From positions 1 to 64,000 of the forward strand of contig JASAMV010005179.1 in NCBI GenBank assembly GCA_030248065.1: DNA of 64,000 nt. Direction: 5' to 3'. Position 1 is the first letter of the stretch. Each line of letters begins with the position of its first letter. Position numbers and translations under genes: made by a program. Positions 1 through 60,877 of this stretch are shown here, piece after piece. Source of the stretch: Rhynchonema sp. JSB1_4. Taxonomy: Eukaryota > Nematoda > Chromadorea > Monhysterida > Xyalidae. The notes under the pieces were generated by a model. That model did not search any database and was not told where the DNA came from. It saw nothing but the letters and a program-made list of their open reading frames with translations.

Positions 1-2026
1 TTTGGATTTTGTCCGTGCTTGTTGCTGGCAGTGTCTTGTTTGTACAGGTCGGGTGTGATGGCTTTGGTTCAGGTGTTCTTGAGTACATTCGCACTGACGA
101 TGACCTGGTGCACAGCCCGCATGTGAGCATAGGTCGAAATGGACAGTCAAAGGCTGCACAGCTCATATCTTTTTGATACAGTTTGTCGCATTTTTTAGTT
201 TGAACTTGATCAATATTTTCCTGCACAAACTGAAAAGTCTTTTTTGCAGGAAGCTGCTCATGAAATCAAGACCCGGCCGATCAAGCGGGACAAACAGGCC
301 AACACAAGGACGGACTTTGTCGACAAATTGCAGGTTTGAATCTGAAATATTGCCGCCAAGTAATTTTCCTGTAATTTTGCCTTTTTGAATCAGGAAACCC
401 TGTTCAACAATTCCGACCTCGTGCTGTACATCGATCAAGAGACATCCGATATTATCTATGATCTGTTACTCGATTCGGCCGAAGTCTACGGAACAGCGTT
501 GGAGCCAGCGAATGAAACATTTGATTTTCTCATTGTTCAATTCAACCATATTCATGTTGTCGCTAACGGTCGGTGCTGGTTTGAGCCACGTCGAACCACA
601 GAACACTTTGGTGCCGTTGGTCTATGCCCCATTGGGTTGGCCCTGTTGTTCGGTGCTGTGCTGCTCACGGCCTGTTTGATGATTAGAAGGATTGAGAAAC
701 GCAGAAATCGGTGGGTTTGCTGCTTGGTGGACTTTATAAGTCGATACTGACGATGACCTGATGCACCGCATGTCTAATAAATCAGACCAAAAGCTACCTT
801 TGGCTGTAACTCCACAAGAGTAACCGATTTGTGTGCATTCCAGCAGCAACTGTGCCATCTGCATGTCCCTGTCCATGTTGTTGTGTTTCTACGTGCTGCT
901 GTTGTGCACGTTGTTCATTGTGCTCGCACTCGTCTTCGACATGGGCGTCTACGAAAGCGTCCGATTTCTGGTGCTGACAGTTTGCGCCCTGCCCGTTGAC
1001 TACTTTTCGATTCCGTGGTTAGCTCGGGGCACTAAATACTTGTTGTTGGTTGTTTAGGTAGGTCAAGTACATACGCAATGGATGGGCATGATAACAACTG
1101 GGCAACGTTTCGTGAGTCTTCTGATCTGGGAGATTTTGGTACCCTGTTTTAGACTAAGCCCATGTAAGCGCACGTTGAGCTACTACTGTATGTAGGCCTC
1201 CATTGGGGCCAGCTGAACTAGCAGGCACCAAGAATTAGCGATTTTTCGGAAAACCTCTTCCCGCACATCTCACTCAGGCCGAACCGTGATTGTACAGTAC
1301 TAGTGCTGCTGATGATCGTGCCCCTGAATGCCACCATCCTGTTGATCCTCGGTCGATTCGGTTGGGCCAAATTGGTCAGATGCATTGCCGGTTATGGCAG
1401 TCAATCGGGCAGTGAATTCTGTCTGATTGATGACACCGATGACAGGTTGGCTACATGATGTTTCATTCAATCAATGTAGCTGTGATGTGACCGACAAATG
1501 CCAACAGCTTTGCAGATGTGAGAAAGTGCACAAACGTATGGCTCAATGCAGTCCGATCGCAGAGGTTCGCGATTTATGTTGGCATGATTTTTTCAAGTCA
1601 ATTTGATTTATTGTATATTGTCTGCTCAAAGAACAGACCCATGTTGTCACGTGCATGCCGGAATTCTAATACAGAGCGATAAATTCGAATTCGCCAGGTA
1701 GCTCGAGCATTTGATCTAGACGAACAAAAACGATTGATGAACCAACCCGACATCAGAGATGACGAGCGCTCATGGTTGGCTGAGGTGAGTTGGGTCAACT
1801 GAAAGAAATAATGCAAAATGTCATTGTGAAATGTTAACAAACATGCCACGTATAATTTTCTCCCCCAAAAAAATTTCAGGTGCGACATTATGACGATCCG
1901 GTGACACCGACCGAAGTTGTGGCCCATCATTTCGGGCCCGATTTCGGCAGCGGTGAAGTGACCACCATTCGCTCGACCATTATTTGTGACACGAATCAGG
2001 CCGACCAGGAAAAGGCCCACATTTGA
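1..2026 (+). CDS. 3' part of an unrecognised multi-exon membrane protein (5' end outside window)
   Basis: I do not recognise the family. Exons I can follow are about 250-333 (ends ..TRTDFVDKLQ), 395-572 (ETLFNNSDLVLYIDQETSD.., probably extracellular), one from about 844 with a strong hydrophobic segment (CMSLSMLLCFYVLLLCTLF), one at about 1302-1451 with a second segment (VLLMIVPLNATILLILGRF), 1699-1784 and 1879-2026. The last two give a soluble tail ending ..NQADQEKAHI and a TGA stop. At least two transmembrane helices separated by a loop are visible, which suggests a multi-pass surface protein with a long ectodomain before the pair. The junction after the 844 exon does not resolve cleanly in phase, so the model is incomplete there. 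The downstream neighbour IFT56 is on the same strand about 460 bp away. Confidence 0.5.
83..120 (+). repeat. Copy of dispersed GGTGCATTCGCACTGA repeat
   Basis: Contains CATTCGCACTGACGATGACC followed by TGGTGCAC. It matches copies near 745, 4516, 6321, 36315 and 41723. It lies in non-coding, probably intronic sequence of the first gene. Confidence 0.55.
745..771 (+). repeat. Partial copy of dispersed GGTGCATTCGCACTGA repeat
   Basis: Contains ACTGACGATGACCTGATGCA, the right half of the family consensus, within an intron of the first gene. Confidence 0.5.
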
Positions 2027-2187
2027 TTGACAGTACAGTTGACTGCCATTAAGAATTATTGAGATTTTGTGATAAACAATGTTTGTGATTATGTCACTTT
2101 CTAACTGCCAACATTATGCATTTTGTAAATAACTTCTGTCATTGCTACATCATCTTGGTCGCAGTAAAGTTTATGGTCCCGTGTGTG

Positions 2188-2193
2188 AATAAA
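2188..2193 (+). terminator. Candidate polyadenylation signal AATAAA
   Basis: An AATAAATAAA run lies about 160 bp after the stop codon of the first gene and before IFT56, a suitable position for 3' end formation of the upstream transcript. It is inferred from position and motif only. Confidence 0.4.
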
Positions 2194-2482
2194 TAAACTA
2201 ATGAAGACAGATGGGTAAGCAGCTTGGTGCCTTTGTGCTATAAATCAAATTTGATTTTTCCAGCTGTTTGAAGTACCAAGGTTGCCTGTCTGTGGCATGG
2301 TGTGTCGCGTGGGTCTCTTTGCAAATGCAGGCGCGGTGTCAGCAACCATGTTGTCATGACGACGAATCACAATGTGCATCAGGTATGGACATGCCCTCTC
2401 GAGAAGTATGAAAAACTGATACTATTCATCTTCTGACGCTCAATCATCTGAAAATTGATATCAATACATTTTTGGAAATAAA

Positions 2483-5400
2483 ATGGTGAGGATTATTCTT
2501 TAAATTTCCAAAAAATAGTGAACTACCAAAACTCTGAAATTTCCCATCATGAACTGCTGCTCTTTCAGTTGCTCTCACGATTCCGTAAAAAGAAGAAAGA
2601 GGCGGAAACTCCCCAAGCAAAGCAGAGTCAGAAGATCCCAGAACTCGCGCAATATCTCGAGCAACGAGACTATGCGGGCGCCATATCGTTGTTGTCGGTT
2701 GGTGAAACATCAACGATAAAGTTAACACATTGTCGAATCAAATAGCGATTTTATTCTCGTTCAGTTTCAAAATCCGTCCAACAAAACCGATAACACGGTG
2801 TCTCTGTGGTTGGCCTATTGTGGATTCCACGCGGGCGATTATAAATTCGCGGCCGATGTGAGTGATGTCATGCTGAGCTCGGTGATGTTTCAGTTAATGT
2901 ATTGCAATTTATCAACGATTTATTCAATCTTTCAGCAATACCAAATGTTGCTCAGAGACAACGCTGCCAGTCCACCAAAATTCGTGGCCACATATCTGGC
3001 TTGCTGCTTGTTCTACATGGGCCTGATTGAAGAGGCGAGAGATGCGTGCGAAAATGGTAAGTCTGACATTCTGTCACACAAAAGAAACAGCCCATCCTAT
3101 TGTGGTTGGATCGGAACATACCGTGAAACATCACTCTCCATCCATTTTAGATGTCAAATCACCGTTGAAAAACCGCCTGCAGTTCTACCTTGCGCACAAG
3201 CTTGCGGACGAGAAGTCACTGATGCAGTACCACTCGCAGTTACAGGTCTGTGACATACAGTACACCTGAATAAATTCCGACCATGTGATATAACTTTAGA
3301 TCCCCGCCTTTTCACTTCAGGACATCATGGAAGACAATCTGTGTCTGGCCAGCATCCATTACATGAGGGGACACTATCAGGAAGCAATTGACATTTACAA
3401 ACGAATACTGCTGTCAAACAAGTTGGGGTACACTTTGTGGCCATTTTGTTGCAGCAACGAGCTCAAATTTTTTTCAGACATTACGTGGCTTTAAACGTGT
3501 ACCTGGCGCTCTGCTACTACAAGCTCGACTATTATGATGTGTCACTGGTATGTGTTCACAATGACAATCAATAATTCAATACAATCAATCAATCTGACTT
3601 GTATCCAGGAAGTGCTTCAAGTGTACCTGCAGCAGTTTGCCGACAGCGCCACGGCGGTCAACCTTCGAGCGTGCAACCACTACAAATTGTACAGCGGAAA
3701 ATCGGCCGAGGTCTGGAATTTATGAATGGTCACATTTTACGAACAGCATCCTAATTCTGTCCTATTGATGTTTCACTCGATCGATTTCAGGCCGAACTTC
3801 GAGTGCTGGAGGAGCAGGCGACGCCAACGTTCAAATTTGCGCAGGATTTAGTCGAACACAATATGGTAAGTGAGATAAGGTTTGCACCTTTCTAAAAGAG
3901 GTGCTCGTTTTGACTGTGACGAATGTTTTCACGAAATGTTTTCATCCAAAAATGTGGGTAAGATGTTTCAAGGCTCTCGCAAAATAGAGTGAAGGATCAA
4001 GCAAGAACGATACATCGGGATCGGGAATTAAGTAACGAATAAAACTACGAAGAACGTCCTCTTATTTTTTTATCAACCTTGCATCAACCAAACAACGTGG
4101 TCATTATTTTTAGCCAAAAACTTCAGAAAAACGGTATGATTGTGCCTCAGGTTGTATTCCGTCACGGCGAGCGTGCGTTGCAAGTGTTGCCCCCGCTGCT
4201 CGACATGCTACCGGAGGCGCGACTCAATTTGGTAAAAAAACATACACATTGGTATACTTCTTTAATAATTTTGAAATATCAAAATTCATTTTGTACCCAG
4301 GTGATTTACCATCTCAAGAATCACCAAGATGTGGATGCAGCGTACGCTCTGCTGCACGATGTCGAGCCGCAGGCACCCAACGAGTACATACTCAAAGCGA
4401 TCGTTCAATGTTTGATTGGGCAGAAGGACATCGATGTGAGAACTTTACGCTTGTTTGGCATTGGAGTCTGCTAGTTTGTTCAGTAGAGTCTGTGGGCAAG
4501 ATGGTACGCCCATCTGGTGCATTCGCACTGACCGATGATCTGGTGCAGAATACAGGTCTGTGAAAACAGTTCGAAGCGAGCAACCAATCCCCGTGCACAA
4601 CTTTATGAATGCAAGCATAACGCACAAGTTCGCCAAAATTATTTCAGAAGTCACAATTGAGCACGGCGCAAGAGTATTTCCGATTGATTGGAAGCAGCCC
4701 GGCTGAATGCGGTAAGATTTTCTGCAGAAAATATCAAACCATAAGAGAGTGGGGGTCTTTGTGCTTCGGGGCATCAGTAAATCTCTAAATATCCTTGATA
4801 TTAAACGCATGGACCCAAGGCAAGACCTGACATACCGAGTGTGAGATTGGCTTCTATTTTCTCTGTTTTTTTAAAATTCCATCCAATTGCAAACATTACA
4901 TCGCAGACACAATCCCTGGTCGTCAGTGTATGGCATCGTCCTTTTTTCTACTCCGTCAATTTGACGAAGTTCTGGTGTATTTGAATTCGATCAAAACGTA
5001 TTTCTACAACGATGATCGATTCAACTACAATTACGGACAAACACTCGCTGCAACGGGGAACTACGTGGATGGTGAAGAGGCTCTACTGCTTGTGCAGGTT
5101 TGGCCCAGTATCCATAGGGATCCAAAATAAAAACTTTAATTCGACCGAATCCACAATCACGCAGAAATGCATACTTGGTAGTCGAATGATTGGATCGGCA
5201 AGGCAGATCCCGTCCCTAATCGGATCAATTTTGATTAGTTTACCGATAATGGGCCACTGTCGATGGCAGATCGATGCGATCAGCCGATCATGAATAAAAA
5301 TTCGCATTTGCAGGATCAGGACATGCGTGTCGATTTCACGTATTTGATGACGCTTGCACGATGCTGTGAGTTGACAAATTGTATTCAAACATTGTGAAAC

Positions 5401-5952
5401 ATCAGACACATTAGTTTGTTGAACGTTCAGACATAATGAACCACAAAGCGCGGCTGGCGTGGGAACTCTACTTGCAGTCAGAATCCGAAACCGATTCGTT
5501 CACAATGCTGCAGTTGATTGCCAATGATTGTTACAGGGTAAATTTGCAATAGGCCTTTTGCATAGCAATTTTGTTCATAAAATTTTTAACATGCAATTTA
5601 GCAGCAAAAATGCATTTATTTTCCATTCAGATGGGCGAATTCTACTACGCGGCTAAGGCGTTTGACGTATTGGAGCGCACGGACAGTAACCCTGAATATT
5701 GGGAAGGAAAGAGGGGCGCATGTGTGGGCACGTTTCAGATGGTCGTTGCCGGCAGAGAGCAAAGGTTCCGTTTTTGTTATTCTTTAGCATGATTTGATTT
5801 ATTTTAATGTTTCATGCACTAATACGTACTGTAATTTCAGTGACGCGTTACGCGACGTGATGGGCATGATACAGACGACCAGTCATCCGCAGGTTGAAAT
5901 GATCGTCAGAGTCATCAAGGGTTGGGCACGCGATAATAAGGTGCCGATTTAG
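2483..5952 (+). CDS. IFT56: Intraflagellar transport protein 56 (TTC26/DYF-13 family), 17 exons
   Basis: IFT56 is a TPR protein of the IFT-B complex that carries cargo in cilia. The ATG (2483-2485) is the last codon of its exon, directly before a GTGAGG donor. Exon 2 (2569-2697) continues [11 protein letters not shown].. and reads through [21 protein letters not shown], matching the start of animal TTC26. Later exons run at about 2765-2857, 2936-3057, 3151-3245, 3322-3427, 3479-3548, 3609-3711, 3791-3865, 4150-4231, 4301-4435, 4649-4711, 4908-5097, 5315-5365, 5430-5538, 5631-5764 and 5841-5952. Diagnostic stretches include [73 protein letters not shown] and [20 protein letters not shown]. The C-terminus ends in ..WARDNKVPI. 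The full family length appears present and no break was seen, so the organism should have ciliated cells such as sensory neurons. Confidence 0.93.
4516..4547 (+). repeat. Copy of dispersed GGTGCATTCGCACTGA repeat in an IFT56 intron
   Basis: GGTGCATTCGCACTGACCGA followed by TGATCTGGTGCA. It sits in the intron between the IFT56 exons ending near 4435 and starting near 4649. Confidence 0.6.
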
Positions 5953-6168
5953 TCTACCGATCACACTTTATGATTAGCCATGTGTTCTTCTGCTTTTTCT
6001 GCAATTCTTGTCGTTTTCTGCGAAAGAGTACCAGTATGACAAAATGACAAGCTCAAACAAATCACAAAAATCATGGAGGTTGCAACAAAATAACTCGAAT
6101 CGCACGCTTGTATCATCCAGTCCAGTCCATCCAATACAGATTATGGAATGAAATGTGAGTATTTTCGG

Positions 6169-7246
6169 TCACGTTTGTCTCAATCGATTGATGACAATGA
6201 CAGCGCCAGCAGCAGCCACACCACCGATCACTCCGATGCCGACCAGACGACCAACGTCCGTTGCGCGCTCGACCTGACAAGCAACATGGACACGAATAGG
6301 TGTGGAGCACGGGGCCACCAGGTGCATTCGCACTGACGATGGTGCGCCGGTCCTTGAAAGCAGATAGAAACGGGCCACGAAAAATCTTATTGCTGCGCAA
6401 TTCACAATGTGGAATAACTTGTGTTTGACAGTGCATCAAGTTGCAATTATTCAGCTGTCACCCACCTGTCCACTCATGAATCGTCCGTATCTGCACCAAG
6501 TTGCGAAATGTTCACAATTGAGCTGACGCAGGTTGTAATCCTGCGAGTTCCATCATTTTGTCGCTCACTTGAAATTAGCCTGGTTAAATCAAATTTGTAT
6601 CCCAAATGTAACCAGACAGCACAAATGAGCAACCTGTGGTCCCTGTGCGGTGGTGGCGCGTTCGATAATGCGCTCCACTCGATATGGTGTGAATCGATGA
6701 TCGTATGAATTGTTGATACGACACGCGTCCTCGTGGGCAACGTCTAGGAATCCGTGCACGCTCACCTGCACATTAGATATAGGAGGAACACTTCGTTCAC
6801 GCAGACAGTGGGGTTCAACATGAAAGGGGTTCGCACTCGCACAAAATTGTGCGTGCTGCAAAATAATCAGATGCAATGTGCGGTTTTCCACACGTTATTC
6901 CTACTTTACCATACAATCATCACACACAACTATAAAGTATGTGCAATGCCTATCCTACAACCACTCACTCCACATCAATGCCCAGCTCGCTGATGTTTCA
7001 CCAACCTCTGCATTGATCGTGTTCAGAATGGCACTCGTCTGTTGTTTGAAAGTGGGGTCAACCAGATGTGCCACACTCCCACCACCAATGTACACAGCCC
7101 AATGCTAAAACAAAGTTGATTGTAATTTCATTTTGATAAAAATTATTTATTAAGTTTTGTACCTTATAGGTGCCCCTATCGAATTCAATGAGATCGCCGG
7201 CCTGTGCATGAATCAGCAAAGCGTGCGGGTTTCGCCACTCCGACAT
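6169..7246 (-). CDS. PLAAT/LRAT-domain phospholipid-metabolising enzyme (H-rev107-like), 5 exons
   Basis: Exons in coding order are 7246-7163, 7104-7006, 6765-6634, 6540-6466 and 6273-6169; all junctions are phase 0 and give 164 aa, close to the usual 160-170 aa of vertebrate PLAATs. The protein begins MSEWRNPHALL, then GDLIEFDRGTYK and HWAVYIGGGSVAHL. His29 and His41 have the family's 12-residue spacing, and NCEHF supplies Cys114, completing the NlpC/P60-type catalytic triad. Between them, INNSYDHRFTPY corresponds to the family's NNKHD-type segment. The C-terminus (LVGIGVIGGVAAAGAVIVIN) is a membrane anchor, as in PLAAT3. Family members act as phospholipase A1/A2 or N-acyltransferases on membrane phospholipids. 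The gene is antisense to its neighbours. A weak alternative is a LRAT-type retinol esterifying role. Confidence 0.88.
6321..6348 (+). repeat. Copy of dispersed GGTGCATTCGCACTGA repeat in PLAAT intron 4
   Basis: GGTGCATTCGCACTGACGAT followed by GGTGCG, inside the intron between exons 6466-6540 and 6169-6273. Confidence 0.6.
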
Positions 7247-25154: not shown

Positions 25155-25177
25155 CGTGTGTGTGTGTGTGTGTGTGT
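25155..25177 (+). repeat. (GT)n microsatellite
   Basis: About eleven GT dinucleotides in a row upstream of the Spen start. Confidence 0.9.
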
Positions 25178-46700: not shown

Positions 46701-49700
46701 TTGTCGACAAAGTACGGAAGTTGCTTGAAAAACATAACTTTCTAGATCATATATGTGTGATCTGATCTGATAGGATCTAAGCTGATTTTTTGCGTTTCGA
46801 GATTTAGTGATGGCTCTGGTGTACTCATTTGGACCAACTTTGTTTATCACGCTTATCACTCCAGTGAAATCAGGAAATCTCAAATTATCTGCGTATGATA
46901 CGAAAAGAGTGACATAACCAAAAAGTCACGGTAACTCGCTTCGTAAAACCTCGCCTTGAAACATCACAGGTGTCATCCGACCTAATAGCAGCGTTGCGCA
47001 ACACGTCAGCCAATGAGGATGACCAAACAGCCGGCATCTCCGATGAGCACGTCCCGGTGGTGGAGTACACCGAAGAGATCGTGGACGAAGGCGAACCCGA
47101 GCTCGTCATTGCTGAGGAGCAGGTGATGGAGCCTGATACTCGGGAGGATACGCCACCGGTAAAACAGACAACTGTTGATTCAAGTTCGGATTTTTAAAAA
47201 CTAACTCTTAAGCATACTTGTTCCGCGGAACTGAAGGAACGAGTGGAGGAACGAGCGTTTTTGCTTGCAGCGTAATGCTCGTTTAACTAATCATCAACAA
47301 CACTCAGCCGTTGGTCACAAGGCACATGCACAATGAACAGCTTGGGTAGCGCACATACGGCTGAAGCAAAATCACTGTTCCTCCACTTTCAATGTATTGA
47401 AGCGGGTGGAGGAATTTGTGTTTATAAACAGCCCGACGGTTTCAAGGTCTAATGTTCTGTGTGCTGATGCATTGAGACCTGCTTGTCAATTTAAACACCA
47501 CCCAAACCCCCACCCCCCCAACTAACTTCTTTAAAAATGCTATCAGACAAAAGCAATTGCTGTTTCAGACCGAACCCGAGCTGACCATACCTACGGCTGA
47601 AACATCAGCCAGACCGGCGAACAGTCACGTCGATGAGGTTTGTCCGGTTGTGATGAATTTATGTGTCATTTTCTCTTATTTCTATGGAGATCACGAAAGT
47701 CACACATCGATCTAATTTCAGATAATCGACGACATTGTTCGCGGCTACGTTGAGATCGACCCGGACAAACTGATCAAAATGACGGCCAGCAAGGCAGCGG
47801 AACAAATGGTCCAACAACAACAACAGCAGTCCACATCAACTGAACGCAATGTACATCAGCCAATCATCACCACTCCATCCTGTGCTGTGGCCGGTTGGTT
47901 GGACTTCTGAATAATGTTGCAAAATAGATTTGACAGTTGCCGAACTTGGTTCACGCCTTGATCATGTGAAACCAAGTTTGGCGCCGGCTTTTATGTTTTC
48001 ATCTAAACACCAGAGGCCGTCTGATGTTTCATAACTCAATTGCAGCAGCAGCTGGCGGCATTGGCACCAATCAGCAGTCGGGTCAAGCAACGGTCACTCT
48101 TCCGCCGTCATGTCAACGTCGACAAGCGCAACAGCCCACTGTCGTCCACCATCAAGCCAATGCACAACAACAACAACATCAGTTAGTGACAACGTCAGCA
48201 GCTGTCCAGGTCCAACAACCTACTTCGGCGGCCAGTATAGTGGCACCCGTTACGACCAGTGCCGCTGCGAACATGACTGCTTCCTACGATCAGCTGGTGC
48301 TTGAACAGGTATGAAGTAGTTGGAAACATCAAATTGTGCTCCATACTGCAATAATTAATCTGCCCTTGGATTACAGCAAGCCCAACAACTTCTCCGTCAA
48401 CAACAACAGCAACAAGCAGCAGCCAAAGCACAAGTCGCACAGTCCTATCCTAATGTAACGGGCTACACAGCACCGGTCACATCTGTTGCATCGGGCTATG
48501 CTGCCACGCAACAACTGGCTGATCAACAGGCCAGGGCCATCTTTGAACTCCAGGTACTGTAACATCTTTTACGTTGGTCCAACATCAGCGGAAGTAATGC
48601 CATTCAAAAAACACCACTGATGCATGAGCATGATTAACGTTTTGCAGCAACAGCAACAACAACAACTGGCGGTGATTCAACAGCTGCGACAGATGGGACT
48701 GCCCGATGACCAAATCCAACAGTACCTGCAGCAGTACGGCATGGCCATACCGCCGACCAGCGCTGCCGTGCAGAACCCCGCAATTTTGTTGCAAGAGCAC
48801 GTCGCCTTGCTGGATCAGGGTGCACAGGCGTACGGGGTGCAACAACGACAGCAGCAGGACCCGAATGATGGGGGAGAGGTGTTGGCCGTAAGTCAACGAA
48901 CTTCTCGTTTTTGGATGTTAATTTTTTGGTAATTTATGAAGGCTGATATCAAACTTGCGGATCGGGTTTACTTTGATTGCATTTTGTCTGCCTCGGTCAT
49001 TTGATTTGCTTAGCTGATGCAATCAGGACAGCTGACACTGACGAGCGCAGAGAAGTTACTCAATAACCACTGAAACTTTCACGCTGTTCGAAATCAGAAC
49101 CGTCGATGTGCAAAATGTTTAAAAAACCAATGTCCAATGTCGATCCGATCTCCCTCACCATGTTTTACACCATTCGTAATTTATTTTGTTCCAGAAATAC
49201 CCGATTCGGTGGCAAGGTTTGCTCGGTCTGAAGAACGTCGAGGCTCTGGTTCAAATGCACTTCATAGCGGGTAACGACTCGCTGATCGGTGCGTCTGTGA
49301 ACGAGGCCAGCCAATCAACGCCCTACAATGGCAATGATGCGTTGATATTGAGGATCAATCAACGAATGAGAATGGAGCCCGGACAACTGGATGGCGTGCA
49401 GGGACGAATGATGGTTAGTGCTGAAGATCAATGTGATGTTTCACTGGCTGCTTGTATTTATCTTCTCAATGCTAAAGAATTCAACACAATCATCGTTTAC
49501 CAATGTTTCAGCTCGGCAACGAGCACTGTGTCCTGCTTGCATTGCCCTGTGGAACATCAGCCAATGACATTATGGCCAACTCTGGTCGATTGCAGGAGAG
49601 TTTCATCCAGTACCTCACATCCAAGCAGGCCGCCGGCATCATCAATGTGCCCAGCAGGGAGGATCCGGTATGTCTTTCTTAAAACGTACTACTTAATTGA

Positions 49701-49967: not shown

Positions 49968-51110
49968 CAAGTGAAACATCGCATGTGTCAAACTATGACA
50001 ACATATACTTCAACAAAACACAACATTCTTGTGTTCATATTGGTGCTATGTATATCGCTGCATCGTTGTTTCACATGATGAAGATTAGTTGTACCTGTCA
50101 CACACTGTTTGTGATGGAAAGAAGGCTGGTTTGCAAACATACGGTCACGCAGGAGATTTACGGTGACTCCAGCAACGCACAGGTGTAACAATGCAAACCG
50201 GCCCTATATGTAGTTTTCAGATTTGGCTAAATCCGTGAAGAGTTCCGGAGTTCCTTATTTGTTACTACACTCTCCTGTGATACTGTGCAGATGTAGATCA
50301 AGCATATTTACATACTGTTCCATAGTAAGATCGCCTTTAGGTTTGGAATGAGGTAGAATTTGTCCGATTGTGTCGCTCAGTGTTGTAATTGACTGCTGGG
50401 CGGCATAAATGGACAAACTGTCCACAACTTTCTTTATCATAAACATCAATAGTCTGTTATTCGCTAGTTCTTGTTTGATTTTTCTTTTTTCGATCCGAAG
50501 ATAAGATGTTTGATCAGTTGCTCCTATACATCTGCCTGCACTTTCAGAAACTTCTATATTATTCCCGTTGTTCGTTCCAAGAAACTTTGATCATATGATT
50601 ACTGTTCGTTTCAGGCCCGTTTTTTTCTTTTTTTGTGTGCTTTTTCTATTGTATGTTTATAAAGTTCTTTTGCGTTTCTATTTATGATGTTTATTCTCTT
50701 ATTATTGGTTCTTAAATGTGCGTGTGTGTATGTGTGTCGTCCTATTAGTCATTCTGTTACACGGTTGGATACTCTTTGGCTACAAACGCAAACAAGTACA
50801 GAAAAGTAATAAACTATTGCAAAAGTCGATGACAGGATATTTTATTAACAATCACAAAAATGATATGGTTATTTCCTGAATCTGACAAAAAGCAAAGCAA
50901 ATACAAAGAATTGCGGAACCACATACAATACGGTACATAGTGTTGCTGAACTTCACGCACGTGATGAAGCTGCTCTGAAAAGCACACAGGAAGCATACAT
51001 AGTTCATTTGCACATATATGAAGGTATATTACGAAAGAATACGCAAGATTAACAAATAAGGAACGACCACAATTATTTAGCTCACGCACCGGGACGAAAC
51101 AAATAGCCAG
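49968..51110. other. 3' regions of convergent Spen and receptor genes
   Basis: Spen (plus) stops at 49967 and the receptor (minus) stops at 51111. A TGAAACATC word lies 4 bases after the Spen stop. AATAAA on plus at about 50807 and on minus at about 50840-50845 are candidate poly(A) signals that would make the two 3' UTRs meet or overlap slightly. No other gene was recognised. Confidence 0.4.
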
Positions 51111-54100
51111 TCAGGTCCATCCATAACTCAGGAACCAGAGCAGACACGCGACGACAGTGACCATGAACGTGATTAGGGACACGTTCTCGACTCTGTCGGC
51201 CAGTCGCAACCAATCCATCTTGATCTTGGTTGTTCTGTCGTGTTTGTCCCATCTCAACTGCGCTTTCTTGATGTGTGTGCGTACGTCGCCCAACACCGAG
51301 TCCAATTCGGCTAACGTTGTGGTTGTTGTTGCTGTCTGGCTGGGTGATGTTTCATGCTGCAACTGCATTTCGTGCTGCTGTTGTTTGCGAGACGCGGCCG
51401 ACTCTTTTCGTGCAGCTGTGGCTGAGCAGGGGTAGTCGGGGGAGAGCAATGATGACTCCATGTAGTTGGACGACAGAATGTGGTTGGGCGCCTGAACGTG
51501 GTGAACGTGTTCACTATGAAATTACCCTACCTGGTGACCGACAATTTGGTCCCAATTTTTTTACTTTGTACATTAGGCTGAATATGCACTGCGCCCGGAA
51601 TGAAAATTGGTGATCGTATCGGACATGGGCTAGGACATGTTCAACAAACTGATCACTTTGATGCCGTCTCATCACAGTTTCTGTTACTGTCAGTATGCGA
51701 TCGACAAACCCGCCCATTGTGGCAGAAAATCGCGAGTACCGATGAGGCCACCAGAAAGAGCAGGGAACTTGATTTTCATACCTGATGACATTGCGGTGGT
51801 GTATCCCCAGTGGCCTGTGCATCGAGCAGCTTTTCGTGCATCTCGGGTGCAGTCCGACCGGTGGTGCCCAGCCGTGTGCTTACGTCACCGTTGATGTACA
51901 GCCGACATGAACAGTCAAGCTGAAACATCTGTGCGACAATCTGGCGGAAATTATCTTATTTTCATGAGTCGCTATCTAGCTTGGTGAGCGGATCGGTAGA
52001 CTTACTGATGCCGCTTCTGTCGACCAGCGGAAAGTTCATTGTAACTGTCTAGGAACAATTGTAAGGTTGGCAGTGTTTGCGTGGCATCTGTGAAGTTCGA
52101 AAGATCATTACTTCAACAACATCACGCAATGAAGGTTTACGGCATGTATGTAGTGTGTCCTATCCGACCCGATCACCAAGCTTTTATGCCACACTCGGTT
52201 TCTTGTCCTAATTTTCATTCCTATGGTCTCGCACCACCGCCTACCATTCTGCATTGCATCGCATTTCGGCATTTCTTGCGTTTGTTGCCCATCCTTCCAC
52301 TGGTGGGACGTGAGCCGGGCACAGTGCTGCTTGGCTGTACACTTGTCTTCAGGCACATAAACTTGGCTGCCCATGTTGGTACCTGCAATTTATGCGTGTA
52401 CATTGGGTGGTATAGGTAATCCGCCAGCTCATGGCACTCGGACACACAGGCTACATGCTACATTACTGCCGTCAATGAATGGATCTATTCTCTGCAGTTA
52501 TCCGTTGAAACACCCCCAAATTTTGCAGCAATGCAGAAAAGTGTGATGTTAAGTAGCAAATGAAAACCGGATAAATTAAAAAGCGGTCATCAAAGTATGA
52601 CACTCGCTCAAAGTGTACATTTTGTTTAGAAAATGGCGTGTGCTGCTGCATGCGCTGTGTGTCTAAAAAGTGCCATGAGCCGATGGACTGCCCATACATA
52701 CCGGCCACGTGTGTACAGTCTGACTTTCTTCAGTGACATGATCGGGCACTTTATGGTGGAAGAGCGTTACTAATGAAGAAAGTACACAAAAAGTGTACAC
52801 GAATGCAGCCACATTTGATTCATCCGAAAGCAGCGTACACCCACCGGTTTATTGTAGATGCCCTGTTTCTCAATGACGATCACAAGTGAACTGCTGATGA
52901 TTGCACACGACAACAGGCCGACCATGCACGAGTAGTAAAAGGCTGCAGTTGCAGTAAACGGTAGTCCTTTTATGTTTCAATCATTGATTTTTTAAAAACA
53001 ATATTTGGTTTTATCCACCAACCAATGAGCGGTACGCCATCGGATGTGCGAGGCAGTTTATCGGACACGCCTGTTTGCAGGAAGAATATCGCCAGAATCG
53101 TGGTCAGACCCATTTTGACCTGAATGAAAATAAAGAATGAAGAAATCATTTTCAGTTGTTACGCACAGATATGAAACCTCACAACTGGCGAGCTGATGTT
53201 AAGCAAGGACATTATCATAAGAAGCGTGGCCCCACATACAGTGACACAAAAATGAAAAAAAAGACATTTCGCGCACCTTTTCCTGATGCGTGCCACTGCC
53301 AACGCTGGCCATGTGGAAGCCGAGCAGCGCCGAGACCGTGAGTGTGAATGAAGGGAACACCAGATTCATGACGTAGAAGAACGGTTTGCGCTTGATGTGT
53401 ACGTTGTAGGACAGGATGGGGAAATAGCCGTACGAGTAGAACTCGCGTGTTCGGGTGACGGTCATTTTGAGCAGATGCCACTCCTCGTTGGCCAGGAAGA
53501 TCGACAGATCGACCTGTGAATGGATTCGAAGTGATTAGAATTGATTGTATTGATCGGTTGATTGATGATCGATTGATTGGCCAGCCCAATCTGCTCTCGT
53601 CTGCGGCTTGAACGTTGGTTAGGTTGTCTGACAGCAAGCGTTGGCGCGTTGAGGACAGCACACGAACACTGTGGCAGCTGCAGCGAAATCGTTTGCGGCA
53701 AGATGAACTGAGCTGGAGCTAGCGTCGCCGAAACCGAATATGGTACAGCGGTACAATTATAGAGCCAAGCGGGATGAAACCAAATTGAAGGAAAGACAAC
53801 TGAGAAAAACTAAAAACAGAAACCATATGCTAAACAGCCAGATATTGCGTTGTAATAATGAGAAGCGCTTCAATAACCCAAGTAGAACGACAGCCTTGTG
53901 CTAACAGCCTGAGGTAACCGACATAAAATAATAAATTCAGCGAAAGACGCACGAGAGGCATGAAACTGAGGCCTTGTGTACGCTGAGAAAATTTCCGCTC
54001 TTGAAACAGCTTTGCAATTATAGGATGCCTTGCATTGGCAAGAATTAGACAGAAATCAAAGACACAAGGCTTGCAGTGAAAGCAAAGATGTTACATATAG

Positions 54101-55704
54101 GTACTGTATGTATATACATAGAGCTGGTGACGACGGCCTGCTCTTACGCATTCGTGAAACTCACATCTTGCTGAAAGACAGGAATGATCGGTAGACCTTA
54201 TCGAGCTTTGGACAATCGACCTTGTTACAACTATTTTAAAATTATGAATCTAAAATCTCAATTGTGAACACGGAGCGTGTAAAGAATTTTTTATTTGCCA
54301 TGTGGAAGTTAAAGGAATAACACAGGGGAAAGACTCGTGGACTGAGGATTTGTTTACTGTAGGTACATAATGGAGGAATTCACCATAGGTACAGCGAGAA
54401 GTTCACTCACTAGGCTGTGCGTCGACTGCAACAATATCATTTTAAATTATCAATATGGATTTAAAAAAAATTAAAAAAACTCCCCGTACCGTATTGTTCA
54501 TCATCCACAGATCCATGTATCGATCGTCCATATGCCAGTTGGCCATCTGCATTGAACAGCTATGTTCATCGAAAGGAAAGTTGGCCACGTCGAACTTGCA
54601 TGGGAAACTGCAGTGTTGTGAAACATCAGCTAGTAAAGTTTTTAAACAGCGAAATAGTTGCGGTAACACATACCCACCTGTAAGAGAAGTAATAGCCCCT
54701 TTGGACGCGACCATCGTGATACACGTGCACGGGACAATGGGTACACGTGGCTGGGCTTGGCTCGTCCTTTCTGCAAAATGTCGTTGGGTGGGATAATAAT
54801 AGAAATTTCAGAATAGACGACTTTGCATAAACCTGACTGCAAGTCTAGCCTAAGCCAATTTTGAGCCTGAACAACAGCCGGGCGGCAAATGCGCGAGTGG
54901 ATGAGGAAGACCAGCGTTCAGCATTACCCTGTTAGTGAACATAACAACTCGAACGGATTGTTAACTGTGACAAAGACAAAGTACAGCATCGGGATCCCGT
55001 TCGAGCACTCCACATATGTGGATAAGATGGTTTGTGAATCATGGTACCGATTCTTGCGATAGAACTAACGCTCATTTTTTGGAATTTAACCGCCCCCAAT
55101 TTATTGCGGTCCAACCGCGGCGGTACATGCAGTATGTATTGCGTGCGATAACGTTGCGGGACCTCCTTTTCGCAATTTTAATACAGAACCTGTAGTAAAT
55201 GTCAATTTCAGGTAGCCAGAGTTCACTTCGAACGATGAATGTTTCGTTTAAATGACCGTAGTCCGCTGGATCCCATCTTAGCTGTGGATCGGTCCAGTAC
55301 TGAAACATCAAATGATAAAAGCCACGCGTGTGTAGCAATAAACGTCCGCTGATTCAAAAATCCATTCTGGTCAAGACATTACCATATCAATCCAGCCACA
55401 GATTTTGATCGCGCTCTTAGCCGGTTCCTGAGAAAAATCAGACGAATGTTCATTCTATTTTGTAATGTGCCAGGGTACATGCATTGTACAGTAAGTATAT
55501 GAGGAATAATGTCACATACATAACGTACCACAAACAAAATGTCATAGGGCCACATATATATGCTGACATTGACTGCTTTCCTTGTGATTGCATCCACCGG
55601 CACCCTTGTCCGTTCGTAATGGCGCAGCAGTCGCTCATGCAACCGGTCCACATCAGTGCGCACGGTCGAGTCCATGCGTGATATGTGGGACACGCCGTTG
55701 TCCA
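51111..55704 (-). CDS. Cys-loop ligand-gated cation channel subunit (nicotinic-type, non-alpha), 5' exon missing
   Basis: Exons in coding order: 55704-55529, 55427-55383, 55299 to about 55195, 54964-54928, 54770-54678, 54607-54490, microexon 54425-54411, 53513-53277 (M1), 53119-53023 (M2), 52942-52845 (M3), 51919-51782 and 51491-51111 (M4). Visible landmarks are YWTDPQLRWDPADYG, ELWLPEIDIYY, the Cys-loop CKFDVANFPFDEHSC with exactly 13 intervening residues, M2 VKMGLTTILAIFF preceded by EK (cation-type) and followed by LPRTSDGVPLIG, and M4 VSLITFMVTVVACLLWFLSY. Loop C (EFYSYGYFPILSY) lacks the vicinal Cys pair, so this is a non-alpha subunit. The signal peptide exon was not found; Penelope sequence begins about 190 bp upstream. 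Confidence 0.87.
52410..52697. mobile_element. Small TIR element (MITE) in receptor intron
   Basis: The left end GTATAGGTAATCCGCC then AGCTCATGGCACT is mirrored by AGTGCCATGAGC then GATGGACTGCCCATAC on the right. It resembles the ends of the element at 61397-61731. It sits in the intron between M3 and the cytoplasmic-loop exon. Confidence 0.6.
54411..54425 (-). other. 15-nt microexon of the receptor gene (STHSL)
   Basis: On the minus strand the 15 bases are bounded by TTGCAG and GTGAGT and are phase 0 on both sides. They join ..MMNNT to VDLSIFLANEEW. Omitting the microexon also keeps the frame, so it may be alternative. Confidence 0.5.
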
Positions 55705-56287: not shown

Positions 56288-58730
56288 GATTATGTGTCAT
56301 TTCCTCGCGTGAGAAAGTTCCTTGCGTGAACATTCTCATCGCGTGTGACTTTTCCTTGCGTACATTTTCCTCGTGCTGCGACACTTCCTCGCGTCCATAG
56401 TTAAGGAATATTTGAAGTTTCCTCCTTATCACACCATAAGCAAGCCATGAAGCTATCAAAATCTCCGCATGACTTCAGCTTCCAGATACCTAATAACCCA
56501 TTGCAGAAAGAACCACGAAGTTGGCGCGAAACACGAAATAAATAAAAACTTGCATATTTGTGTTCACAGCTCGTTTATTACCTACTTTACTGAAAGTGAC
56601 TTTTTGCAAAGTTGCGGAGATTAAGCTTATGGTGGGAGATAGAAACGTGCGATGGTATGAAAAGTATGTATCAATGGAATCCGCTGCTCCATCTGCGTGC
56701 GATGGTGCAAAGTACAATGCTATCTGAACAAGTGGGAAGCCGTGAAGCCATCAACAGCAATTGCATGCACATGTATACAGTATGTACATAGGTATGTACC
56801 CAAGACACCATCAAGATGTTGCAGCCAAGCGCACACGCACGTAAACACTGCCGAGGATCAGCCAGAGGATGTACACGACGCGAATACAGAATTTGAACAA
56901 CCGCCTCACACCCTTTTGCAACATTACCAGTCAACGGATTATGTTCAAACTTGAGACTGGCGGCCTGTGCGTGCACATTGCGTGCCTTGTCAGCCAGTGT
57001 TGTTTGCAACGCAGTGCTGTGCTTTTGCTTTGTTTGCCCATCTGAAAATCTTTTTTGATGTTTATTTTTCCGCTTTTCAGCATTGGAATGTTCGGAACAC
57101 AAGCCCGTAACAGGGGCAGAGACTTCGGTCCAGCGATCCAGGACCATTTGAATGTCAGAAAAGACGCAACAATTTTCCCGTTTCACTCAGCCCGGCATCG
57201 TGACGTTGTGTACGAATTCGCAGTCAGGAACACGTACAAGAATGGAACGCAACGCTGTGCATGTCTTGGATGTGAGAAAGCACATTGGGTACGGTTATGA
57301 TTGGATTCTTTGACTAGTTTAGCGCTGTTATCATGCCCATCGACAGAAGTGAGTAGATTATAAGGTGACACTGAGCATTGATTACCATTTTTGGCATGGT
57401 CGTTCTTGTGGTCATGTGTCATGTCTTGTCTTGTGTTCCATACCTTTCATCTTCATTTGTTTTCAGAAACAGAAAGCGATTGATCAGAAGAAGAACAAAC
57501 AAGACTACAAGAATCTGAGGATCGCTAGGGTGTCGGTCAAAAATGGACGATTCGTGGACACCGACCCCGATTACCCGGAGCACGCCAATGTCTTTATTGG
57601 GTCTCATCAGATCAATTTACATGTGAGCAACTAACTCGCGCTGATGTTTCAGGCAAAAATGCAAAGAACTACAAACAAATGGTCAGGTGCCACTAAACGC
57701 CTGGGACAACATGACCGACCAAGTCCGAAATCAGTACGCTGGTCAACCATCGAAAATCAGGCAGATTGTGGACCAGTTGCCCGATTACAACGTTGCTAGG
57801 AGAACGCTGTCGAGAAACGCGTCAACTGGACTGCAGCGCATCCAATCTGAGCGCACTGCCGCCGCCTGGACCAGATGGGTCATGCACGACTATCAAGTTG
57901 CACGGCGCTAATACGACGCAGTCCATTTTGCCGGTTCGTTCCATTAGTTTGGATTTCGTGTTATCATATTCATTGCTGGATGAGCGTATCTGAAATCCAA
58001 ACGTCACTGCACCGTTGTGCAGACAGATGGACTGAGTCGAGATGCTTGAGCTCTCTTCCTTACATTTACAGGGCACAAGCACTCCGATTGAAGGCCGCAG
58101 CAATGTCCGTAGCAATGTCCGTCCGAAGCACAAGCAACGTCCAATCAGTATGAATCTGAATCCGCCCTGTTGTTTGATGCTAGGTACTTGAATCCAGCAC
58201 TGTCATACGATACGCCAAATCATGATTTCTCTTATTTGTCCACTATGTGATTGTTGCATTTTCATTTTCCACCACTATATTGTTTCATTTTCGTTATCTT
58301 CCTTTCATTGTGTTTTGTTTTGCTCTCCCCTTAGTCTGTCTCTTTGCTTTATCTTGGGAATCAATGATATGATCGGTTTGCTTTATTTTGTGTTTCTCCA
58401 GTGTATCGTGTCAAATGTTGGTTTTTTATATTTTGTGTATCGGTTCTTTTTAATTTGAGCAAATAACTGTGGAATAAACAAAACAGTTAATATTGAACCA
58501 GCATATACATACGCAACAATCCATTAATCGAAATACTGATGGGTTGGTTGCCCTTGGTCACCGCTCACGCACGCGAGGAAGTGTCCTGGGGTCAATCTGT
58601 CCAGGTACGGTAGCACACGCGAGGAAAAGTCGCAGCGCGAGGAGAATCTGGCTTCACGTGAGGAACTTTCCCACGCGAGGAACTGACACAGGCAAGGAAA
58701 AGTCGCAGCGCGAGGAACTGTCCCCGGACC
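56288..58730. mobile_element. 2.44 kb insertion with 8-bp TSD carrying a FLYWCH-like gene
   Basis: Target duplication TGCCATTG is exact at 56280-56287 and 58731-58738, and the Penelope reading resumes across the gap, proving insertion. The termini lack a long perfect TIR. Each end carries an array of TTCCTCGCG-type words, six at 56297-56395 and seven inverted at 58571-58720, spaced roughly 15-20 bp. Subterminal arrays, an 8-bp duplication and a FLYWCH-like cargo suggest a Mutator- or hAT-related element; this is inference. No transposase is seen, so it is non-autonomous or a captured gene. Confidence 0.8.
57082..57911 (+). CDS. FLYWCH-like zinc-finger protein carried inside a transposable insertion
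   Basis: Exons: 57082-57291 after a TTTTCAG acceptor (possible start ATG at 57088), about 57469-57624, and 57687-57911 ending ..MHDYQVARR with TAA; junctions are phase 0. The first exon contains VYEFAVRNTYKNGTQRCACL followed by GCEKAHW. The second has LRIARVSVKNGRFVDTDPDY then PEH. The order Y..N..C-x4-C..A-R-V..NGR..H resembles a FLYWCH zinc finger, a fold related to Mutator transposase DNA-binding domains. The third exon (MTDQVRNQYAGQPSKIRQIV..) is unrecognised. The gene may have an additional upstream exon. The open frame across three exons suggests recent function. Confidence 0.6.
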
Positions 58731-59341
58731 TGCCATTGATGTGTTCTTGCACGCGCTGTTTTAGGGTTCGTGTGGTAGAGCCGATGTATGTGTAGCCTTG
58801 TGGACATGAACACGTTAATTCATACACGCAATTGCGACTGTCTGTGACTTGGGTGTTGGTGTTACGTTTGTAGTAGAGGAGCCCCCGCAGCGTTTGTTGC
58901 TTGCTGAACACCAGTTGAGTGTCGTGGTGTGTGCGCATGTACCTTTTGAGTTGATGTGAGATGTTCCCGTCAAATGGTATTGACATTCTGTTTGTGCATT
59001 TGATGGCCTGATTGTCAGGGCGAGTTAATTGTTGTGTGATGAACTGGTGACCGTAGCCGTTGCGTTTGAGTTGCGAAATGATGTAGTCATGTTCAGCGCG
59101 TAATGTTTCAGGATCGATGCAGTAGCGATCTGCGCGTTTCCTGAGACAGCTGATAAGAGCACGTTTGGTGCTCATGTCCACAAACGACGAAGCTGGCAAT
59201 GTTCGGCCGGAATTGTTTGCTTTGCGGAAGACTGATGTTTCAATGTGCGTGTTGCGTTGCGTAATGTTTATGTCAAGAAAGCTGAGCTGACCGTTGACAG
59301 TGTGTTCAGTTGTGAACTGAATGGTCTGGAAAATGTTGTTG
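58731..59341 (-). pseudogene. 5' part of the split antisense Penelope copy, head-to-head with the full copy
   Basis: The minus strand reads ANNIFQTIQFTTEHTVNGQL through CSCPQGYTYIGSTTRTLKQR to EHING, near-identical to 60017-60625. It is truncated near 59341 where the sense copy begins, giving the inverted, pseudo-LTR-like arrangement often seen in Penelope elements. Confidence 0.9.
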
Positions 59342-60877
59342 GCCCTCCTCAAGCCCAAGCTAACGCCCTCCCAACTCCACGCCCTTATCCCCAGCCAACA
59401 CAAATGCTCCACCCCCACTCCCTACGCCCTCATCAAAACCCACAAACCCGCCCGCCCCCTTCGTCTCATCACCCCTACCATCCCGTTTCCCACCTACCCC
59501 CTCTCCAAGCAACTCCATCGTGTCCTCACCCCCGCCGTCCAACAAATCCCCCATCGTATCATCAACTTCACAGACCTCGTTTCTCAACTGCGATCCCTTC
59601 CCCTCACCCCCACGACCCAAATCATCTCAATGGATGTCAAAGCCCTCTATGACAGCGTTGATACGTCCCACTTCATCCAAATCCTCCCTGACATCCTCAC
59701 TCGCACCGAACACCATTGGCGTCCTCTCACCCCCCTGCTCAGCTCTCTTTCGATCGCTGACATCGTTGAGCTATTTCGCATCGTGTTCGACACCGCATTT
59801 CTACAGTTCAACAACGTCATCTACCGTCAACACTCTGGCTGCCCAATGGGTCACCCGTTGAGTTGTGCGGTCAGTGATCTCTACATGTTCGCCCTCGAAG
59901 AAACGCTTCTCTCTGACCCCAACATCTCTCAACCCATCCTCTACGGTCGTTTCGTCGATGATACGATTGTTATTTTCAAATGTGTTGAGGATATACAACC
60001 GTTCGTTGACAAAGCCAACAACATTTTCCAGACCATTCAGTTCACAACTGAACACACTGTCAACGGTCAGCTCAGCTTTCTTGACATAAACATTACGCAA
60101 CGCAACACGCACATTGAAACATCAGTCTTCCGAAAAGCAAACAATTCCGGCCGAACATTGCCAGCTTCGTCGTTTGTGGACATGAGCACCAAACGTGCTC
60201 TTATCAGCTGTCTCAGGAAACGCGCAGATCGCTACTGCATCGATCCTGAAACATTACGCGCTGAACATGACTACATCATTTCGCAACTCAAACGCAACGG
60301 CTACGGTCACCAGTTCATCACACAACAATTAACTCGCCCTGACAATCAGGCCATCAAATGCACAAACAGAATGTCAATACCATTTGACGGGAACATCTCA
60401 CATCAACTCAAAAGGTACATGCGCACACACCACGACACTCAACTGGTGTTCAGCAAGCAACAAACGCTGCGGGGGCTCCTCTACTACAAACGTAACACCA
60501 ACACCCAAGTCACAGACAGTCGCAATTGCGTGTATGAATTAACGTGTTCATGTCCACAAGGCTACACATACATCGGCTCTACCACACGAACCCTAAAACA
60601 GCGCGTGCAAGAACACATCAATGGCACCACCAAGCAAAACAACAATGCCTCAGGCATGACCATTCATATGCGCACACATCAATGTACAGTGCAACACGTA
60701 AAGGTGCTAGACCACTGTAACACAGAAAAACAACTGCGTGTTATGGAGTCGGCCTTTATTCTCGCTCGCAATCCATACATCAACAGAGCACTGAAACCCA
60801 ACAATAGCCAATATCTGTATCAAAATGCCACTTGTTTATCTGACTGTTTTGCACCTTGTTTGCGTTTTCTGAAATGA
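59321..60877 (+). CDS. Penelope-like element polyprotein: reverse transcriptase plus GIY-YIG endonuclease (5'-truncated)
   Basis: 518 codons. RT motifs in order: YALIKTHKPARPLRLI, ISMDVKALYDSV (first catalytic Asp), GCPMGHPLSCAVSDLYM, and YGRFVDDTIVIF (catalytic DD, the VDD form). The C-terminal part has the GIY-YIG endonuclease (CVYELTCSCPQGYTYIGSTT then RTLKQRVQEHI). The first few codons, including ATG 59321, lie in the inverted fragment 58731-59341, so the start is fortuitous. The element proper begins near 59342 and lacks the usual N-terminal region. The 3' end is near 61016, where similarity to the second copy stops. An intact long frame implies fairly recent insertion. Confidence 0.93.
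   Translation: MVWKMLLALLKPKLTPSQLHALIPSQHKCSTPTPYALIKTHKPARPLRLITPTIPFPTYPLSKQLHRVLTPAVQQIPHRIINFTDLVSQLRSLPLTPTTQIISMDVKALYDSVDTSHFIQILPDILTRTEHHWRPLTPLLSSLSIADIVELFRIVFDTAFLQFNNVIYRQHSGCPMGHPLSCAVSDLYMFALEETLLSDPNISQPILYGRFVDDTIVIFKCVEDIQPFVDKANNIFQTIQFTTEHTVNGQLSFLDINITQRNTHIETSVFRKANNSGRTLPASSFVDMSTKRALISCLRKRADRYCIDPETLRAEHDYIISQLKRNGYGHQFITQQLTRPDNQAIKCTNRMSIPFDGNISHQLKRYMRTHHDTQLVFSKQQTLRGLLYYKRNTNTQVTDSRNCVYELTCSCPQGYTYIGSTTRTLKQRVQEHINGTTKQNNNASGMTIHMRTHQCTVQHVKVLDHCNTEKQLRVMESAFILARNPYINRALKPNNSQYLYQNATCLSDCFAPCLRFLK

What the first reader, a model, noticed from the sequence alone, without database searches (positions are those of the whole stretch)
1457..60121. TGATGTTTCA/TGAAACATCA is massively over-represented across genes, introns and a retroelement
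By eye I count about 33 copies of the 9-mer GATGTTTCA (either strand); about 28 extend to TGATGTTTCA. Random expectation for a 9-mer on both strands of 64 kb is about 0.5. Approximate positions: 1457, 2703, 2883, 3123, 3765, 3962, 5394, 6991, 18674, 20513, 20824, 21060, 26478, 26740, 27139, 27343, 35598, 37127, 38660, 43262, 45689, 46957, 47598, 48021, 49433, 49971, 51346, 51923, 54617, 55301, 57643, 59232, 60112. Contexts are mixed: just after donors (GTTGGTGAAACATCA at 2698 and, minus strand, 7005), at acceptors (TGATGTTTCAG at 38660, 57643, 55301), in exons where it encodes Glu-Thr-Ser, between genes, and in the Penelope frame. It is absent at 7.0-18.6 kb (SR genes) and 27.4-35.5 kb (transposon). 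No flanking sequence is shared, so it is not a transposon copy. The word resembles the C. elegans piRNA (Ruby) motif CTGTTTCA, itself related to the snRNA promoter element, so a small-RNA promoter role is one hypothesis. A replication, recombination, nucleosome or splicing element are others.
Basis: partly seen in the sequence, partly recalled or inferred. Interest (0 to 1): 0.9.

Follow-up and report, generated by a model that had tools for sequence, protein, structure and literature searches.

The report
Genome-wide snRNA-promoter word in a nematode
One ten-letter DNA word occurs about 37,500 times across this genome assembly, at least fourteen times more often than chance models predict, and the same word sits in front of some of the genome's own U1 and U4 splicing-RNA genes; in this likely nematode it would mark start points for thousands of small genome-defence RNAs, but the start signal expected beside the copies was not found.

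Summary
TGATGTTTCA occurs 28 times in the window (0.45 expected) and 37,556 times in the 204-Mb assembly, equally on both strands, against 345 for the reversed word. Copies share no flanks apart from some duplicates. The site is a sharp core, RATGTTTCA with T preferred before it; other one-base variants sit near background. In 17 diverged duplicate pairs the word is intact 12 times against 5.0 expected. A window gene (IFT56) is closest to the nematode Plectus sambesii. The word lies at the promoter position of this genome's snRNA genes: exact at -45/-47 in 4 of 28 U1/U2/U4/U5 genes, within one mismatch in 17, within two in 24. One PIWI-clade exon was found. This fits the published link between the nematode piRNA 'Ruby' motif and the SNAPc motif. 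But the copies lack the second snRNA box, and 202 non-redundant copies show no start-site signal (YRNT or T) where snRNAs start. Best reading: Ruby-like SNAPc half-sites that likely drive Piwi-class small RNAs, transcripts unproven; a DNA-level role is the main rival.

The parts
1456..1465 (+). TGATGTTTCA copy
   Evidence: exact match
2703..2712 (-). TGATGTTTCA copy, IFT56 intron 1 just after the donor (exon ends read by eye)
2883..2892 (+). TGATGTTTCA copy, IFT56 intron (by eye)
3124..3133 (-). TGATGTTTCA copy, IFT56 intron
3766..3775 (+). TGATGTTTCA copy, IFT56 intron near the acceptor (by eye)
3962..3970 (+). GATGTTTCA copy (A before it)
   Evidence: NRATGTTTCA variants are enriched
5395..5404 (-). 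TGATGTTTCA copy, IFT56 intron
6991..7000 (+). TGATGTTTCA copy
18674..18683 (-). TGATGTTTCA copy
20513..20522 (+). TGATGTTTCA copy
20825..20834 (-). TGATGTTTCA copy
21061..21070 (-). TGATGTTTCA copy
25900..25908 (-).
26477..26486 (-). TGATGTTTCA copy
26741..26750 (+). TGATGTTTCA copy
27141..27150 (-). TGATGTTTCA copy
27344..27353 (+). TGATGTTTCA copy
35600..35609 (-). TGATGTTTCA copy
37128..37137 (-). TGATGTTTCA copy
38659..38668 (+). TGATGTTTCA copy
43261..43269 (-). GATGTTTCA copy
45690..45698 (-). GATGTTTCA copy, inside a long open frame (45241-46422)
46957..46966 (-). TGATGTTTCA copy
47598..47607 (-). TGATGTTTCA copy
48022..48031 (+). TGATGTTTCA copy
49434..49443 (+). TGATGTTTCA copy, inside the open frame 49180-49710 that holds a SPOC match
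49972..49980 (-). GATGTTTCA copy
51345..51354 (+). TGATGTTTCA copy
51921..51929 (-). GATGTTTCA copy
54619..54628 (-). TGATGTTTCA copy
55301..55310 (-). TGATGTTTCA copy
57642..57651 (+). TGATGTTTCA copy
59233..59242 (+). TGATGTTTCA copy in an inverted duplicate of Penelope-like sequence
60115..60124 (-). TGATGTTTCA copy in the Penelope-like open frame (59321-60877)

Best explanation
The word TGATGTTTCA lies at a fixed place in front of some of this genome's own U1 and U4 snRNA genes and is repeated about 37,500 times as solitary sites, each of which likely recruits the SNAPc-type complex to start a short Piwi-class RNA, as Ruby motifs do in nematodes, of which this is likely one. Shown: the excess, its even split between the strands, the sharp RATGTTTCA consensus, better conservation than the flanks in 17 duplicate pairs, a fixed place 44-48 bases upstream of Pol II snRNA genes (exact, or with one or two changes), the grouping of one gene with Plectus, and a PIWI-clade exon. 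Inferred: that SNAPc (SNPC-4) binds the solitary copies, that Pol II starts near them, and that PIWI carries the products. Because no initiator signal is found downstream, either the start point would be loose or only a minority of copies would be active.
For: Excess. Consensus: none of the 24 one-base changes at positions 3-10 of the word exceeds 4 copies in 264 kb, against 67 for the word; all 8 NRATGTTTCA words are enriched (5-67 copies, 1.0-3.0 expected) and the 8 NYATGTTTCA words have 0-3 copies each. Soft flanks C(-5) T(-4) G(-2) C/G(-1) and C(+10) look like a protein footprint. Conservation: 12 of 17 diverged duplicate pairs intact against 5.0 expected; 5 mismatches against 28.1. snRNA genes: exact word at -45 in 2 of 9 U1 and at -47 in 2 of 3 U4; one mismatch or fewer in 7/9 U1, 1/8 U2, 3/3 U4, 6/8 U5 (17 of 28); two or fewer in 24 of 28; chance per gene 0.0014 and 0.0053. 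Taxon: IFT56 best hit Plectus sambesii, grouping with it at support 1.000. PIWI: exon L129 matches Siwi, Piwi-A, Piwi and Piwi-like 2 chains at 38-31.5 bits against 23.4 for AGO1. Precedent: the Ruby motif derives from a SNAPc motif with a GTTTC half, and P. sambesii snRNA and piRNA promoters match in sequence and spacing (PMC6436959, section 9).
Against: No YR, YRNT or T enrichment 38-56 bases downstream in 133 exact copies or 202 RATGTTTCA copies; 49.6% have a YRNT starting at 42-50 against 44-56% in control windows. A YRNT excess at offset 46 (16 of 133, P = 0.027; offset 35 has the same count) is not stronger in copies with better flanks (5 of 58 against 4.1 expected; 5 of 27 poor-flank copies against 1.9), is absent from windows around it and shrinks to z 1.2 in the broader set, so I take it as chance. 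The copies lack the second snRNA box (ACTACC 0 of 133 within +10..+30). U1 genes mostly use TTATGTTTCA, a variant near background elsewhere (3 copies in 264 kb, 1.5 expected). No small-RNA data. PIWI rests on one exon, which scores only 24.4 bits with Piwi-like 1 and 15.1 with Drosophila Piwi. The 17 duplicate pairs are not independent. Plectus was the only named nematode in the tree, and both branches are long.
Confidence: 0.48

Rival explanations
1. The solitary copies are bound by SNAPc or a close relative for a DNA-level job (chromatin state, spacing, chromosome pairing or segregation) and make no small RNA.
For: The site is conserved but nothing downstream of it stands out; copies are equal on both strands and in mixed orientation within one gene (5 in IFT56: 2 sense, 3 antisense).
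Against: No precedent in the papers seen for SNAPc half-sites without transcription; dispersed promoter half-sites are the known use in nematodes (PMC6436959).
Confidence: 0.25
2. The copies bind an unrelated abundant transcription factor, which also helps at snRNA genes.
For: A short footprint with graded flanks is what many DNA-binding proteins have.
Against: The place at Pol II snRNA genes is fixed at -44 to -48, as for a core element that sets the start, and U6 has a related word at -56 before a TATA-like stretch.
Confidence: 0.13
3. The word is spread or kept by a mutational process (biased conversion, site-specific insertion) without function.
For: A sharp word with no halo of decayed variants can arise that way.
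Against: Identity with the snRNA promoter word would be a coincidence; graded tolerance at the first two bases looks like binding; no shared flanks.
Confidence: 0.07
4. The copies are remnants of one repeat family.
For: Some copies lie in duplicates (20 of 153 were dropped as redundant, some of them the same place fetched twice).
Against: 124 non-redundant copies show no base preference at chi-square over 14 outside -5 to +10 within 200 bases.
Confidence: 0.02

Closest known systems
Ruby motif of type I nematode piRNA (21U-RNA) loci
   Same: Contains GTTTC (the C. elegans core CTGTTTCA, recalled, shares TGTTTCA); related to one half of the SNAPc motif; solitary, many thousand copies; spread over the genome as piRNA loci are in Pristionchus (PMC6436959).
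   Different: Sharper word; no YRNT or 5'-U signal found downstream; no small-RNA data; a genome whose one tested gene lies far from the nematodes named there.
Bipartite SNAPc + GTTTC piRNA promoters of Plectus sambesii and P. murrayi
   Same: Closest named relative; same GTTTC half; snRNA and other sites share the element.
   Different: Plectus sites are bipartite, 3,082 by motif scan in P. murrayi before 39 were removed (PMC6436959); here the copies are single and far more numerous (37,556 in an assembly that seems to hold redundant haplotypes).
Proximal sequence element (PSE) of snRNA genes
   Same: Same word at -45 to -47 before some U1 and U4 genes and, with one or two changes, before most other U1, U5 and U2 genes in this genome.
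   Different: Many of these snRNA genes also carry a downstream box (such as GAATGACTACCCC or GATAGACTACCCC) that the solitary copies sampled lack.
HIP1 of cyanobacteria (recalled)
   Same: A short word in great excess genome-wide with no shared flanks.
   Different: HIP1 is a bacterial palindrome; this is an asymmetric word tied to snRNA genes.

Membership tests
Ruby-type piRNA promoter motif | GTTTC-containing core in great genomic excess | tested here: met
Ruby-type piRNA promoter motif | related to the snRNA SNAPc motif of the same genome, as a half-site | tested here: met
   (that the snRNA element is the SNAPc site is inferred from its place)
Ruby-type piRNA promoter motif | PIWI-clade protein encoded in the genome | tested here: met
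   one exon on C1663, with matches of like layout on C3368 and C4595:
Ruby-type piRNA promoter motif | YRNT initiator / 5' U at a set distance downstream | tested here: not met
   202 non-redundant copies
Ruby-type piRNA promoter motif | 21U-RNAs made from the loci | not testable with these tools
   no RNA data
snRNA PSE | fixed place 44-48 bases upstream of Pol II snRNA genes | tested here: met
   17 of 28 genes within 1 mismatch, 24 of 28 within 2:
snRNA PSE | second box downstream, as in many snRNA genes of this genome | tested here: not met
   solitary copies: ACTACC in 0 of 133 within +10..+30
snRNA PSE | bound by SNAPc | not testable with these tools
   needs ChIP or footprinting
Transposon or repeat copies | shared flanking sequence | tested here: not met

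The most novel reading that the evidence does not exclude
A genome-wide lattice of snRNA-promoter half-sites, tens of thousands of them and held nearly invariant, that works at the level of DNA and chromatin rather than as start sites of small RNAs: the core snRNA promoter complex reused as a chromosome-wide organiser in an animal.
Probability: 0.25. Interest if true: 0.88.

Novelty: new variant of a known kind. Interest (0 to 1): 0.64.

Why it matters
The published survey found PIWI outside clade V only in plectids, and took the Ruby motif to be a co-opted half of the snRNA promoter (PMC6436959). A genome that groups with Plectus, in which the snRNA-gene word itself is repeated 37,500 times as solitary sites, would be a direct test of that co-option. 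If the sites make small RNAs, they show the half-site system outside clade V. If they do not, a core promoter complex may have an unknown genome-wide job.

Tried and rejected
Rejected: transposon copies for most sites (no shared flanks); a splicing element (equal strands; sense and antisense within IFT56); an Rfam RNA or tRNA at the copies (none found in the window); a 21U-type start at snRNA spacing for most copies; significance of the empty stretch at 7.0-18.6 kb; Echinomermella matsi as source (its assemblies span 52.6-64.6 Mb and its contig plot runs from GC 0.2 to 0.45, passages of PMC13233069; the window's 4-kb bins have GC 0.42-0.48). A search for nematode SL1 RNA found nothing, but its controls were silent too, so it says nothing. 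Of the 17 contigs with Piwi-domain matches I read pieces of 11: seven look like AGO proteins (C4344 by comparison with solved chains; C2124, C3198, C3630, C3982, C802 and C2030 by eye); C1663 is PIWI-like; C4479, C971 and C5352 were left unassigned. The bacterial ParB papers listed hold part of the word; I take that as chance. One search found 487 papers holding at least one of six forms of the word, 40 of them listed; by titles and abstract starts none of the 40 treats it as a genomic motif of an animal. Searches likewise list no paper on such a motif, again by titles and abstract starts.
Full report
Observation. TGATGTTTCA occurs 28 times in the window, 0.45 expected from shuffles; GATGTTTCA occurs 34 times, 1.14 expected. 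In the whole assembly of 203.9 Mb (5,747 contigs) the 10-mer occurs 18,829 times on one strand and 18,727 on the other; the same letters read backwards occur 345 times. Markov models of order 2 to 5, fitted to 264 kb (the window plus the first 10 kb of 20 contigs between C100 and C632) with the word masked, predict 1,228 to 2,612 copies. The excess is therefore 14- to 109-fold, depending on the yardstick. Counted by how many segments of up to 10 kb hold it, it is the commonest of all 10-mers, 21 of 27 segments. Copy number varies between the 20 contig stretches (0 to 10, variance/mean 2.8), and the largest gap in the window is not significant (P about 0.10).

Anatomy. In 264 kb, of which the window gives 28 copies, the exact word is present 67 times and its reverse not at all; of the 24 one-base changes at positions 3 to 10 none exceeds 4 copies. 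At the first two positions the rule is graded: all eight words NRATGTTTCA are enriched (5 to 67 copies against 1.0 to 3.0 expected) and the eight NYATGTTTCA words are not (0 to 3 copies). Outside the word there is mild preference for C at -5, T at -4, G at -2, C or G at -1 and C at +10, and no other position within 200 bases passes chi-square 14 in 124 non-redundant copies of 141. A faint T excess at about +15 to +21 (z about 3, TATA at +19 in 4 of 133 copies) is no larger than the extremes elsewhere and stays unexplained. That is the shape of a protein footprint, not of a repeat. Besides the 20 contig stretches, I fetched 80 of the 100 places that one search listed (contigs C2 to C24). Repeats do contribute: 20 of 153 copies were dropped as redundant, some of them the same place fetched twice, and the pair 59233/60115 belongs to an inverted duplication of Penelope-like sequence.

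Constraint. Where copies lie in diverged duplicates (flanks differing by more than 4%), the word is intact in 12 of 17 pairs; other 10-base windows of the same alignments predict 5.0. Mismatches in the word number 5 against 28.1 expected. The pairs overlap and come from few loci, so the nominal P of 0.0001 is too good; six further pairs with more similar flanks were not counted, and L001-L008 and the snRNA loci were left out.

Whose genome. The window's IFT56 gene (about 2569-5950, + strand) matches Plectus sambesii best (765 bits, 65% identity; next 735 bits; 2,137 hits, 120 listed). In a FastTree of 32 sequences, 31 chosen from the listed hits plus the query, the query groups with P. sambesii at support 1.000. 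Plectus was the only named nematode among them and both branches are long, so it is neither that species nor close to it. A nematode related to Plectus is the inference, from one gene. Five exact copies lie in IFT56. By my reading of exon ends all five are intronic, two in the sense and three in the antisense direction; the tblastn blocks themselves run on through three of these introns. Most of the IFT56 region is present on three contigs at about 98% identity, U4 on three contigs and the PIWI-like exons on three contigs, so the assembly probably holds about three haplotypes, and the number of distinct sites may be near 12,500.

snRNA genes. Rfam searches gave 9 U1, 8 U2, 3 U4, 8 U5 and 5 U6 matches above cut-off. 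I read upstream sequence of all 28 U1, U2, U4 and U5 matches above cut-off, of 4 of the 5 U6 matches and of one U1 match below cut-off. At -44 to -48 the word is exact in 2 U1 and 2 U4 genes; within one mismatch in 7/9 U1, 1/8 U2, 3/3 U4 and 6/8 U5; within two in 24 of 28. The chance for a five-start window is 0.0014 for one mismatch or fewer and 0.0053 for two or fewer. The genes are families of duplicates, so the 28 are not independent. Misses: two U1 genes with identical upstreams (L112, L116), two U2 (L089, L096; three mismatches) and the below-cut-off U1 (L118; three mismatches). Three of the four U6 upstreams (both full-length genes and one partial) have TGATGCTACA at -56 followed by a TATA-like GATAAAA; the fourth (L100) has neither. 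Many Pol II snRNA genes also carry GAATGACTACCCC, GATAGACTACCCC or a close variant a few bases further on; the solitary copies do not (ACTACC in 0 of 133 within +10..+30; GACTA in 2 against 1.5 expected).

PIWI. The Piwi-domain family matched 54 pieces on 17 contigs. Of eleven contigs read in part, seven look like AGO proteins, one by comparison with solved chains and six by eye. The piece on C1663 reads YRDGVGEGQ and matches solved PIWI chains (Siwi 38 bits, Piwi-A 34.6, Piwi 34, Piwi-like 2 about 32) better than AGO1 (23.4 bits), though Piwi-like 1 (24.4) and Drosophila Piwi (15.1) score low. C3368 and C4595 have matches of the same layout. A PIWI-clade gene is therefore present, on the evidence of one exon.

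The expected signature that is missing. In the published nematodes transcription starts two bases upstream of a 5'-U RNA, with YRNT at the start (PMC6436959; section 9 read in full, other parts as passages). The snRNA spacing here predicts YRNT near offset 46 from the first base of the word. In 133 exact copies YRNT at 46 is 16 (P = 0.027 alone; offset 35 has as many), but windows around it show nothing, it is no stronger in copies with better flanks, and in 202 RATGTTTCA copies (of 240) it is z 1.2, with no YR, YRNT or T excess in windows at 38-56. If most copies were 21U-type genes with spacing held to a few bases, I estimate that this sample would show it. In P. pacificus 20% of Ruby motifs in active and 2% in regulated domains had detectable 21U-RNAs (PMC6436959); a fraction that small could escape this test, but then the constraint on the remaining copies needs another cause.

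Judgement. The word matches the snRNA promoter half-site of this genome, and its solitary copies look constrained. By the nematode precedent they are most likely SNAPc-dependent promoters of Piwi-class RNAs with loose starts. Because a defining feature (initiator and 5' U) was tested and not met, I do not file them as Ruby piRNA loci; they would work like them. A DNA-level role for the same sites is the main rival. Papers: PMC6436959 was read in section 9 and in passages, PMC13233069 in passages; all others were seen as search listings.

Noticed in passing
58654-60877: Penelope-like open frame (RT plus GIY-YIG, 59321-60877) with an inverted partial duplicate just upstream; the two word copies at 59233 and 60115 are one site duplicated.
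   Followed up: partly
30060-32580: Array with a unit of about 103 bases (AACATTTATGAA, GTTACCGTTAA, ACGCACCTTCAT repeat in register), with copies of the same words inverted near 30.1-30.4 kb.
   Followed up: no
9880-10950: Clustered CAGTAGGTATC and CCGACACCCG repeats; the same words recur in other contigs (L011, L014).
   Followed up: no
15796, 22765, 22883, 38202, 44161: Perfect palindrome GTCACGTGAC five times in the window and twice in 200 kb of other contigs, above chance.
   Followed up: no
   Followed up: no
window 2000-6487, with C1189 and C4779: Three contigs carry most of this region at about 98% identity; a triploid or uncollapsed source is likely.
   Followed up: partly
loci L089-L121: Many Pol II snRNA genes share a second box, GA(A/T)(T/A)GACTACCCC or close to it, about 15-25 bases after the start of the word.
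   Followed up: partly
+12 to +21 from the word, 133-202 copies: Faint excess of T, of YRNT at +12 and of TATA at +19, no larger than the extremes elsewhere.
   Followed up: no
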